A stretch of 64,000 bases of DNA, from NCBI GenBank assembly GCA_949317995.1, contig OX439039.1, positions 75,588,002 to 75,652,001 on the forward strand, written 5' to 3'. Both the position numbers and the translations under genes were made by a program. Below, piece by piece: positions 26,026 to 59,464 of the stretch; position 1 is the first letter of the stretch; each line of letters starts with the position of its first letter. This stretch comes from Acholoe squamosa (Eukaryota > Annelida > Polychaeta > Phyllodocida > Polynoidae). Below the pieces are notes generated by a model. That model was not told the DNA's origin, made no database searches, and saw only the letters and a list, made by a program, of their open reading frames with translations.

Positions 26026-26327
26026 TTAGGGAGTGGTCATTATTTCTCAACAGGGGGTGTTTTTCTTTTGTTACGCCCCCGCCCTCAATGGCAGTCAAAA
26101 AATTGTTGTGCCCCCTGCGCCTCCAGCGCAGAGAATTTTTGTGCTCCTCTTTGATTTATAGTAGCGCAAAGGCTTTTTTGCTAAAAAGAGTGTAAATTTC
26201 TTTAGCCCCCATCTCAAGAGGGGTCAAAATATTTTTAGCCCCCCCCCTCGGAGGGGTCTGAAATTTTTATGCTCCCCCATCAAACCCACCACGCCTCCCC
26301 TGTTGATGAATAATGACCACTCCCTTA
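26026..26327. mobile_element. MITE, GGGAGTGGTCATTATT ends, TTA duplication
   Basis: The element is 26029-26324. The ~28 bp ends GGGAGTGGTCATTATTTCTC and its inverted right copy differ at few bases. TTA flanks both ends (26026-26028 and 26325-26327), as in PIF/Harbinger elements. The interior has C-rich blocks followed by GAGAATTTTTRTGC and CTCTTTGATYTATARTAGCG, words shared with the remnant at 46030-46150. Confidence 0.85.
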
Positions 26328-26389
26328 GTAATAGATCATACAGCTTGTACTATGCTTGTTTGCAGGCATGGCTGTTTGGTACAGCAACT

Positions 26390-36024: not shown

Positions 36025-36410
36025 CCATTTAAGGGCAGCTGATGCAATGGTGCACCAATGAAGTACTGGTGGGACTGCTTGCCAGCTCTTCATTGGAGCA
36101 TTGTGGTGACCTTCTGGGAATATATCAACCCTGTCGACATGATGCGTGAATGTAGCCCTGGTCAGTTACTCAGGGCTACATTCACGCATCATGCCGACCA
36201 ATGAGAATGATCCATTTACAGACAGCCCTTGCTTCCTCAGATATGGAAAATGCAAGGAAAAATGTCTGGGGCAGTGAATTAAGTTCAATTATGATAGAAA
36301 ACATGGAGTTAGTTCCAGATGTTCTGTCTGAGGTAATGAGGGATCTGAGGAATCAAAGGGTGGAGGAGATGAGGGTTGACTGTATGCATTTGTGACCATT
36401 AAATGGTTAA
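36021..36410. mobile_element. TTAA two-hairpin MITE, enlarged
   Basis: Left TTAACCATTTAAGGGCAG and right CATTAAATGGTTAA are intact. It holds both hairpins (ATGCGTGAATGTAGCCCTGG with its inverted partner). ~170 bases with no family match (36210-36385) have been added before the right end. Confidence 0.75.
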
Positions 36411-40299: not shown

Positions 40300-40346
40300 A
40301 TACTGGTTTAAGAAAATCTGCAGGGTTAAAATTCTAAGCATAGAAA

Positions 40347-40544
40347 CAAGAAATGTGGTTGTGACCGCATAAAAAACGCCTCCCGGCATTTTTTTAAGCA
40401 GTCACAACCTCATTTCTTGCATACGAGGGAATTTAGTTTGGGGATTCTGTATTGTGACACCTCATCACATGGGGGAAATGCAATCATCATAGCGCCTCCC
40501 GTCCCGCTTCGCGGGACCGCCGCTACGCGGCGTGGGGAGGCGCT
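40347..40544. mobile_element. Three-way-junction element, copy 1
   Basis: Opens with a palindrome (40347-40380 with 40385-40419, core CAAGAAATGTGGTTGTGACC). It continues through ATTGTGACACCTCATCACAT and closes with a GC-rich three-way junction at 40491-40544. The second copy at 59295-59457 shares the opening, the middle and the junction but lacks the right half of the opening palindrome. Confidence 0.75.
40491..40544. repeat. T-shaped three-way junction, copy 1
   Basis: A 10 bp stem pairs AGCGCCTCCC (40491-40500) with 40535-40544. Inside it are two back-to-back hairpins: GTCCCGC-TTC-GCGGGAC (40501-40517) and CGCCGC-TAC-GCGGCG (40518-40532). Every stem in this copy is perfect. Confidence 0.9.
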
Positions 40545-40913
40545 AAAAAAATTCTGACTCCGTTTGCACCAAGTAAACCATAAAAGAAAGAGGAAATTGT
40601 CCAATCGTTCTCCTGCATAAGAGACTATTGAAGGACCGTGGTCCCTGAAGGGGACAGAGAAATTTGTCTAGCAGTGATAGAACAAGAGCATAATACCAGT
40701 GGTATTGTGTGTAACTATTGAGAAGGGCGTGTTCCAATTGCTGAGTACTGGTTGTGGAGATGGAAAGGCCACGACTCACAGAACACAAGTCCCCTGTGGG
40801 GGCCTGGAGTGAAGCAGGATATGAAATGGTGGTTTGGAGCGGGCTGGTGGCGTGCAGGGTGACAGTACATCAGACTGCCTGTCAACTCACGTGTCGGAAA
40901 CACCTCTGGTTCG
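40545..40913. other. Non-coding spacer
   Basis: Nothing recognisable. Confidence 0.4.
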
Positions 40914-41175
40914 TTAACACTTTAAAGGCAACTAATGCAGGAGTGCATCATGCCCATTGGTCATCATGATGCACCAACGCAGTGCCAGCTAGACTGCTTG
41001 CCAGCACTTCATTGGAGCATCATGCCGACCCTACGGGATTGATGCACAAACTCCCAGAGGGCCATGATGATGCTCAAATGAAGTGCTGGTGAGCAGTCGC
41101 GCCAGCACTTCATTGGTGCATTATGACAACCAATGGTATGATGCATTAATGCATCAGCGGCCCTTAAAGGGTTAA
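40914..41175. mobile_element. TTAA two-hairpin MITE, intact ends
   Basis: TTAACACTTTAAAGGC to CCCTTAAAGGGTTAA, 262 bp. Both modules here are of the GTGCTGG/CCAGCAC type: hairpin one pairs CACCAACGCAGTGCCAG imperfectly, and hairpin two pairs CAAATGAAGTGCTGG with CCAGCACTTCATTGG. Confidence 0.85.
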
Positions 41176-45951: not shown

Positions 45952-46150
45952 CTATAAGAGGTAGAGGGGTTGATGCATTTGACAGGGCCAACTCTTTTTA
46001 CCACTTGGTCATTGTTTATCAGTGGGGGGGGGGGGGGGGTCCACACAGATGGGCAAACATTTTTGCCCCCCCCCTGCGCCAGAGGCATGGAGAATTTTCA
46101 TGCCCCTCTTTGATCTATAATAGCGAATAGGCATTGTTATCCATTTTTTA
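45952..46150. mobile_element. C-rich MITE remnant
   Basis: A G17 run, then CCCCCCCCTGCGCC, GGAGAATTTTCATGCCCCTC and TTTGATCTATAATAGCGAA, the same order as inside 26029-26324. Its ends are lost. Confidence 0.55.
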
Positions 46151-59030: not shown

Positions 59031-59286
59031 GGCCCTTTGAGGGCTGCTGATGCAATTGTGCATCACACCCATCGGTCGCCATGATACACAATTGAAGTGC
59101 TGGTGATTCTGCTCATCAGCGCTCTCTTAGTGCATCATGCTGACCCGTCCAGGGTGTATCAAATCCCTAGGATTAGCATGATGGATGAATGTAGCCCTGG
59201 CGAGTTACTCACCTGGCTAGTTAGTGGCCAATGATGTATTAGGGCTCTTAAGGAGCTATGGTATAATGCAACCCTTCAAGGGTAAA
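59031..59286. mobile_element. TTAA two-hairpin MITE, eroded ends
   Basis: GGCCCTTTGAGGGCTGC at the left and CAACCCTTCAAGGGTAAA at the right. Both modules are present (AATTGAAGTGCTGGTG; GTAGCCCTGGCGAGTTACTC). Confidence 0.7.
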
Positions 59287-59294
59287 TACACTAA

Positions 59295-59457
59295 CAAGAA
59301 ATGCGGTTGTGACCGTGTAAAAAAACGCCTCCCGCCGTTAATGTCGGTATTCAGTAATTTTGTATTGTGAGACCTCATCACATGGGGCAAATGAAATCAT
59401 CATAGCGCACTCCCGTACCGCTTCGCGGTACCGCCGCTACGTGGCGTGGGAGGCGCT
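59295..59457. mobile_element. Three-way-junction element, copy 2
   Basis: CAAGAAATGCGGTTGTGACC, ATTGTGAGACCTCATCACAT and the GC-rich junction in the same order as the copy at 40347. It follows the TTAA element within ten bases and is followed within eight bases by a large foldback. Confidence 0.75.
59404..59457. repeat. T-shaped three-way junction, copy 2 with compensatory change
   Basis: Arm one reads GTACCGC-TTC-GCGGTAC (59415-59431), where copy 1 has GTCCCGC/GCGGGAC, so both partners of one pair have changed together. Arm two has a single change giving a G-T wobble (59441). The main stem keeps its ten pairs with a one-base bulge at 59409. Confidence 0.9.
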
Positions 59458-59464
59458 AAAAAAC

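What the first reader, a model, noticed from the sequence alone, without database searches (positions are those of the whole stretch)
40491..40544. Three-way-junction element with a compensatory base-pair change between copies
Two copies (40491-40544 and 59404-59457) fold into a 10 bp stem topped by two back-to-back hairpins with TTC and TAC loops. Between the copies one base pair in arm one changes on both sides (C-G to A-T), and arm two changes to a G-T wobble. Paired changes are rare by chance; they suggest selection on the structure or arm-to-arm copying. The T shape recalls terminal hairpins used for replication or transposition, but no related enzyme gene is present.
Basis: seen in the sequence. 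Interest (0 to 1): 0.7.

Follow-up and report, generated by a model that had tools for sequence, protein, structure and literature searches.

The report
Branched-hairpin end of a rolling-circle transposon
The T-shaped fold is the start of a short DNA parasite, present in over a thousand copies in this 1.5-billion-base genome, that looks like a gene-less member of the known Helitron2 (Helentron) group of rolling-circle transposons; its 'compensatory' change is one old difference between two subfamilies.

Summary
The fold is real and at the stated coordinates in both copies. It is one terminus of a dispersed repeat, 202 bp (40345-40546) and 167 bp (59293-59459), best read on the minus strand. 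In the 1.48-Gb genome an exact pattern for the T end matches 1,337 places and one for the other end 1,281, with none in the reversed-pattern controls. On the minus strand the element shows the terminal design published for Helitron2/Helentron: insertion directly after TTTT, no target duplication, a 5'-terminal hairpin holding the 5' asymmetric inverted repeat (AGCGCCTCCC), its complement GGGAGGCG 32-34 nt from the 3' end, and a small hairpin about 10 nt from the 3' end. I call it a non-autonomous Helitron2-type (HINE-like) element. No autonomous partner was found; 19 attempts to search for its Rep/helicase domain did not complete. The C-G to A-T change separates two subfamilies, so it is one event. 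Within subfamilies changes are mostly CpG decay: 94 one-sided against 2 two-sided pair changes, 2.7 two-sided expected. The one unusual trait is that the 5' hairpin is branched.

The parts
40345..40546 (-). copy 1: whole non-autonomous element, subfamily 1, 202 bp; 5' end at 40546, 3' end at 40345
   Evidence: ends fixed by comparison of copies and by empty sites of other copies
40491..40544 (-). copy 1: 5'-terminal branched (T-shaped) hairpin
40535..40544 (-). copy 1: 5' asymmetric inverted repeat (5'-ATIR), 2 nt from the 5' end, outer strand of the hairpin stem
40377..40384 (-). copy 1: 3'-ATIR GGGAGGCG, ending 32 nt from the 3' end, complementary to the 5'-ATIR
40355..40368 (-). copy 1: small 3' hairpin (5-bp stem with one G-T pair, 4-nt loop) 10 nt from the 3' end
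   Evidence: sequence
40347..40419 (.). copy 1: inverted duplication of the 3'-terminal region, giving a long second hairpin
40547..40550 (-). copy 1: host TTTT target (AAAA on + strand) directly before the 5' end, inferred
   Evidence: no empty site for this copy itself
59293..59459 (-). copy 2: whole non-autonomous element, subfamily 2, 167 bp
59404..59457 (-). copy 2: 5'-terminal branched hairpin with one bulged base
59448..59457 (-). copy 2: 5'-ATIR AGCGCCTCCC
59326..59333 (-). copy 2: 3'-ATIR GGGAGGCG, ending 33 nt from the 3' end
59303..59316 (-). copy 2: small 3' hairpin (one G-T pair)
   Evidence: sequence
59460..59463 (-). copy 2: host TTTT target, inferred
   Evidence: no empty site for this copy itself

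Best explanation
The two copies are members of one high-copy family of non-autonomous Helitron2-type (Helentron/HINE-like) rolling-circle transposons, read on the minus strand. Shown here: precise ends, insertion directly downstream of TTTT without duplication, a 5'-terminal branched hairpin containing the 5'-ATIR, a complementary 3'-ATIR and a small 3' hairpin. Inferred from the published group: a Rep/helicase made elsewhere in the genome nicks at the 3' end, peels off one strand by rolling-circle replication, stops when it reaches the 5' end (hairpin against ATIR pairing marks the end), and joins the strand after a TTTT in the target. The branched hairpin would then be a protein-recognition and replication-end signal. 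The C-G to A-T change is one difference between the masters of two subfamilies.
For: Copies: 1,337 and 1,281 exact matches for the two ends, 0 in the reversed-pattern controls. Ends: TTAGCGCCTCCC at the 5' end in 72 of 80 held full-length copies, GCATTTCTTGTT at the 3' end in 70 of 80; 3'-ATIR exact in 64 and with one mismatch in 13 of 80, ending 32-34 nt from the 3' end in 63 of the 64; an ATIR match of 8 nt or more in 59 of 80 against 17 of 1,600 with shuffled 5' ends; perfect 3' hairpin in 53 of 80. Target: one search paired 8 elements with a related unfilled copy in held sequence; in 6 (L006, L016, L023, L033, L034, L085) the unfilled site is N^AAAA on the + strand, with no duplication; L034 has one T fewer and L033 two A fewer than the simplest account. 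The A-run after the end is 6 or longer in 78 of 80 copies, and its lengths (6: 55, 7: 15, 8: 4, longer: 4) match random N^AAAA sites in the window (0.66, 0.20, 0.07, rest), so the element ends at CTAA and the host supplies AAAA. In 11 of 12 loci fetched with a query that stopped short of this junction the run is also 6 or longer (4 of the 12 are places already in the larger set). Published: Helitron-1N1_CRe inserts after TTTT with no TSD; Helitron2 carries two hairpins and ATIRs; compensatory changes between two related elements are reported (PMC3627910: section 9 read whole, other passages).
Against: No Rep/helicase gene and no autonomous copy was found; the PF14214 search did not complete, so the defining protein is untested. 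Of the first 100 listed ends of each kind on contig C1, 44 AACAAG ends have no exact T end within 600 bp; most were not examined, so longer copies may be among them. Two pairs lay further apart: 6,153 bp, which is filled by a DIRS-like retrotransposon, and 20,015 bp, not examined. Two of the 8 comparable sites (L031, L060) show no clean N^AAAA in the relative, and two looser comparisons are not clean either: L007 (rearranged right flank) and L011 (relatives read TTAAAG, only three A). Six held T ends lack a recognisable other end. The 3' hairpin is imperfect in 27 of 80 copies; a G/C variant is common in subfamily 2. The 3'-ATIR lies 32-34 nt from the end, outside the quoted 20-30 bp. N^AAAA is also the kind of site a TTTT/A-cutting endonuclease would choose.
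Confidence: 0.84

Rival explanations
1. A SINE-like retroposon read on the plus strand: the T shape is a 3' RNA hairpin recognised by a LINE reverse transcriptase, and insertion is target-primed at a TTTT/A nick.
For: The target (T or A)^AAAA resembles the TTTT/A preference of L1-type endonucleases (recalled); the plus strand ends in an A-run; of 6 held T ends without a recognisable start, 4 (L042, L049, L070, L072) look truncated at that side.
Against: No target duplication in 6 of 6 clean empty sites. Shared words between the two flanks of 65 copies are close to shuffled pairs, with one 9-nt match where 0.05 is expected, not looked into. The A-run fits two element A plus target A, not a variable tail. 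Runs of T inside the element would stop polymerase III (recalled). ATIRs and the small hairpin at the other end would be unexplained.
Confidence: 0.1
2. A different single-strand DNA element, such as an IS200/IS605-like or parvovirus-like terminal-hairpin system, whose HUH enzyme inserts after TTTT.
For: Hairpins at the ends, insertion 3' of a fixed tetranucleotide, no duplication; the T shape recalls the terminal repeats of adeno-associated virus (recalled).
Against: The ATIR arrangement and terminal spacing match Helitron2 specifically. The two ends carry different hairpins, whereas parvovirus termini are full inverted repeats (recalled). No match to the T core in the viral or prokaryote collections (one exact pattern only, and near relatives of this genome may be left out there).
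Confidence: 0.04
3. A structured non-coding RNA under selection, kept by compensatory change.
For: One two-sided pair change between the subfamilies.
Against: No Rfam match at gathering score in the window; over a thousand copies; changes within subfamilies are almost all one-sided and mostly CpG decay.
Confidence: 0.01

Closest known systems
Helitron2 group, non-autonomous Helitron-1N1_CRe / Helitron-1N2_CRe (Bao and Jurka 2013, PMC3627910)
   Same: Insertion directly after TTTT without target duplication, 5' T, hairpin at each end, 8-15 bp ATIRs with the 3' one just upstream of the 3' hairpin, compensatory changes reported between two related elements of the group.
   Different: Those two families are 657 and 673 bp; of ours 68 of 80 are 148-243 bp. 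Our 5' hairpin is a 54-nt three-way junction, and the minus-strand base after the 3' end is mostly A or T where T/C is reported for Helitron-1N1_CRe.
HINE / DINE-1 and the bivalve Pearl elements (Helentron-associated; PMC4067079, PMC7492417, passages read)
   Same: No coding capacity, subterminal inverted repeats 2-4 nt from the 5' end and tens of nt from the 3' end, 3' palindrome, preference for T-rich sites, repeated internal units in some copies.
   Different: I saw no microsatellite or long satellite array in the copies printed, but ran no repeat search on them; sequence relation to these elements not tested.
FoHeli elements of Fusarium oxysporum (PMC5148889, passages read)
   Same: Helitron2-type ends: 5' hairpin built on the inverted repeat, 3' repeat tens of bp from the end, precise empty sites; joined-end circles suggested by PCR.
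   Different: Full-length elements of about 5-11 kb with coding sequence; short unbranched 5' hairpin; other target preference (TNAT before the insertion).

Membership tests
Helitron2 / Helentron (non-autonomous, HINE) | 5'-ATIR 0-2 bp from the 5' end, part of a 5'-terminal hairpin | tested here: met
   AGCGCCTCCC starts 2 nt from the 5' end in both window copies and forms the hairpin stem; TTAGCGCCTCCC in 72 of 80 copies
[quoted passage not shown]
   GGGAGGCG exact in 64, one mismatch in 13, neither in 3 of 80; ends 32-34 nt from the 3' end in 63 of 64; this lies between the two quoted ranges
Helitron2 / Helentron (non-autonomous, HINE) | 3' hairpin near the 3' end | tested here: met
   perfect 5-bp stem in 53 of 80 copies; imperfect in the other 27
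Helitron2 / Helentron (non-autonomous, HINE) | insertion after TTTT or in T-rich sites, no target duplication | tested here: met
   6 of 8 elements with an unfilled relative; 78 of 80 copies with a run of 6 or more A on the + strand; L007, L011, L031, L060 not clean
Helitron2 / Helentron (non-autonomous, HINE) | autonomous partner with Rep/helicase and the same ends | not tested
   PF14214 search unanswered in 19 attempts (first, last)
Helitron1 (canonical) | 5'-TC ... CTRR-3', insertion A^T, 3' hairpin only | tested here: not met
   minus-strand ends are TTAGCG ... CTTGTT; plus-strand ends AACAAG ... CTAA; target N^AAAA
SINE / LINE (target-primed) | target duplication and variable A tail | tested here: not met
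   no duplication in 6 clean empty sites; run length explained by the target; flank words close to shuffled
IS200/IS605-like elements | HUH (Y1) transposase with end hairpins | not tested
   no enzyme search was answered; the Y1 family itself was not tried

The most novel reading that the evidence does not exclude
The branch in the 5' hairpin may be functional: the outer stem strand can swap its partner for the 3'-ATIR while the two arms stay folded, so that the junction acts as a strand-exchange switch marking the replication end. In subfamily 2, the common one in the sample, the bulge makes the two pairings nearly equal in predicted energy (-12.9 own stem, -12.5 with the 3'-ATIR, arms -14.6 kcal/mol); in subfamily 1 the own stem is favoured (-15.8).
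Probability: 0.12. Interest if true: 0.5.

Novelty: new member of a known kind. Interest (0 to 1): 0.32.

Why it matters
It shows how a striking fold with an apparent compensatory change can be one terminus of an ordinary mobile element, and that the change is a single subfamily difference once many copies are counted. For transposon biology it adds an abundant family (30 of 89 subfamily-2 cores identical over 55 nt) with clean TTTT targets and a branched 5' hairpin, so the published idea that hairpin against ATIR pairing sets the replication end could be tested.

Tried and rejected
Rfam and ARAGORN found nothing in the window. A SINE reading was my first alternative and lost to the empty sites and the fixed A-run. 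A plus-strand Helitron1 reading (CTAA as CTRR) was rejected for the missing 5' TC and the wrong target. Replitrons, from passages of a review (PMC10741241), have terminal direct repeats and 2-8 bp duplications; I saw no duplication and did not test direct repeats by a search; the original paper is not held. Long candidates for an autonomous copy were wrong: L010 with L071 is two copies in inverted orientation with no frame above 130 aa listed in L010, L094 is a 2.6-kb tandem repeat, L095 is a copy interrupted by a DIRS-like retrotransposon. A second wide pair (20,015 bp) and most of the 44 unpaired AACAAG ends were not looked at. Exact scans of viral and prokaryote collections for the T core found nothing. 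Papers: among the 10 listed of 42 papers, none that names Helitron2 or Helentron also holds T-shaped, three-way junction or branched hairpin; that is no proof of absence. Searches by repeat motif in papers gave 8 unrelated listings. Dropped before counts: one search used 66 of 69 cores; one search used 92 of 100 (8 of other lengths); searches used 80 of 88 ends (the other 8 without a recognisable start, at least one of them, in L091, a chance match). The copies were retrieved by similarity to the window copies, so they favour good matches; demand exact sequence at both stem feet and list only the first 100 places, all on contig C1. On checking this report I lowered the main confidence from 0.85 to 0.84 and raised the SINE rival from 0.09 to 0.10, because L011, the 9-nt flank match and the unexamined ends had been left out.

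Full report
Setting. The window lies in an unnamed eukaryote-sized assembly of 1.48 Gb in 63 contigs, at G000:C5:75588002-75652001. It has few long frames, no tRNA and no Rfam match at gathering score and is depleted in CpG (ratio 0.40). I did not identify the organism.

The observation. Both copies fold as described, except that the predicted fold of copy 2 leaves the G-T pair of arm two open. The stretch of copy 1 folds 9.5 sd and that of copy 2 3.9 sd below shuffles as DNA. A strict three-way-junction scan of the window gives copy 1 and six hits in an AT repeat, and none in 5 resampled windows. A covariance model of 12 subfamily-1 cores finds both copies.

What it belongs to. Genome searches returned 43 and 40 matches for the two cores, with 40 of 794 and 40 of 295 candidates scored. 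Comparison of fetched loci shows one repeat with sharp ends: on the plus strand AACAAGAAATG at one side and the T core followed by CTAA at the other. Exact patterns count 1,337 T ends and 1,281 other ends in the genome, with none in reversed-pattern controls. Of the first 100 listed of each on contig C1, 57 T ends and 56 other ends lie within 600 bp of a partner in the right orientation; 44 other ends do not, and most of those were not examined. The middle varies: 68 of 80 elements are 148-243 bp and 12 are 305-419 bp. Two-unit forms were counted in nine fetched loci, two of them overlapping; L010, L027, L028 and L045 also show two units.

How it inserts. Among 80 full-length copies with distinct flanks the base before the plus-strand start is T 45, A 25, C 7, G 3, against T 0.23, A 0.34, C 0.21, G 0.22 before AAAA in the window. 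The A-run after the T end is 6 or longer in 78 of 80, with lengths that match N^AAAA sites of the window if the element itself ends in two A. Loci fetched with a query lacking this junction agree in 11 of 12, four of which are places already in the set. Eight elements had an unfilled relative in held sequence; six show N^AAAA at the junction and no duplication, two (L031, L060) are unclear. Two looser comparisons are not clean: L007 and L011, whose relatives in the window have only three A at the site. Shared words between the two flanks of 65 copies are close to shuffled pairs, apart from one 9-nt match where 0.05 is expected, not looked into. Read on the minus strand, the element therefore sits directly after TTTT.

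What it is. Bao and Jurka (PMC3627910; section 9 read whole, passages of others) define Helitron2 by two hairpins and asymmetric terminal inverted repeats and a 5' T, and report for two non-autonomous families insertion after TTTT with no duplication. On the minus strand our element begins TTAGCGCCTCCC (72 of 80), the stem of the T shape; its complement GGGAGGCG lies 32-34 nt from the 3' end (exact in 64, one mismatch in 13 of 80), followed by a small hairpin about 10 nt from the end (perfect in 53 of 80). [quoted passage not shown] HINE elements (PMC4067079, PMC7492417, passages) and FoHeli (PMC5148889, passages) share this design. I file the family as a non-autonomous Helitron2-type element with the protein partner untested.

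The compensatory change. The first sample gives 33 subfamily-1 and 33 subfamily-2 cores out of 69; the pair in question is C-G in 32 and T-G in one of the first, A-T in all 33 of the second. Against their consensus they show 29 substitutions, 25 of CpG type; 22 pair changes are one-sided (14 broken, 8 kept) and none two-sided. These were retrieved by similarity. A less selected set, the first 100 of 1,337 pattern matches, gives 92 scorable cores (89 of subfamily 2, 3 of subfamily 1) with 126 substitutions, 95 of CpG type, 94 one-sided pair changes (34 keeping a G-T or Watson-Crick pair, 60 broken) and 2 two-sided, against 2.67 expected; the two are made of transitions, three of the four at CpG. 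One listed copy (C1:7429047) carries A on one side and G on the other of the pair in question, an unpaired mixture. So the copies decay without regard to structure after insertion. The one subfamily-level pair change, and the similar report for two CQu elements in PMC3627910, fit selection on the hairpin in the active element, but one event is weak evidence.

Mechanism. Shown: ends, target, lack of duplication, terminal structures. Inferred: rolling-circle transposition by a Rep/helicase supplied in trans, with the 5' hairpin and ATIR pairing marking the end, as proposed for the group. Predicted energies allow the stem strand to exchange to the 3'-ATIR while both arms stay folded, at nearly equal energy in subfamily 2; this is speculation.

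Limits. The search for Helitron_like_N (PF14214) in the genome did not complete in any of 19 attempts, so no autonomous partner is known. A candidate 6.15 kb long proved to be a copy split by a DIRS-like retrotransposon with a reverse transcriptase and a tyrosine-recombinase match below the Pfam cut-off. A genome-wide count of copies with six A was tried and never answered.

Noticed in passing
L095 (G000:C1:86365900-86372700): A DIRS-like retrotransposon (frames matching RVT_1 and, below the cut-off, Phage_integrase) sits inside a copy of the element; the label DIRS-like is mine from these two domains.
   Followed up: partly
L026:126-2060: Three tandem 863-bp units, the first two carrying the element without its T end, the last with it; nested in an inverted, hairpin-rich repeat also present in L007.
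   Followed up: partly
L007:967-1055 and L026:292-380, 1155-1243: A second, unrelated three-way junction with 15- and 14-bp arms next to a hairpin-rich repeat.
   Followed up: no
L094 (G000:C1:69385800-69394400): Tandem units of about 2.6 kb, nearly identical, each carrying one end of the element.
   Followed up: partly
G000:C1:7703601-7703667: One copy has the loop of arm two as GTA instead of TAC, which is what inversion of that hairpin arm would give.
   Followed up: no
L036, L050: An inverted copy of the T core replaces one arm of the second hairpin, suggesting template switching between ends.
   Followed up: no
L083, L092: T cores that have lost part or all of the two arms while keeping the A-run at the end.
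   Followed up: no
window 26029-26328 and 46054-46125: Repeat made of G+C-rich hairpins, many followed by a run of A, shared with the flanks of L007, L010 and L026.
   Followed up: no
window 36047-36200, 40966-41139, 59081-59211: A repeat family (units of about 30-73 nt around GCATCATGCCGACC) scattered in the window.
   Followed up: no
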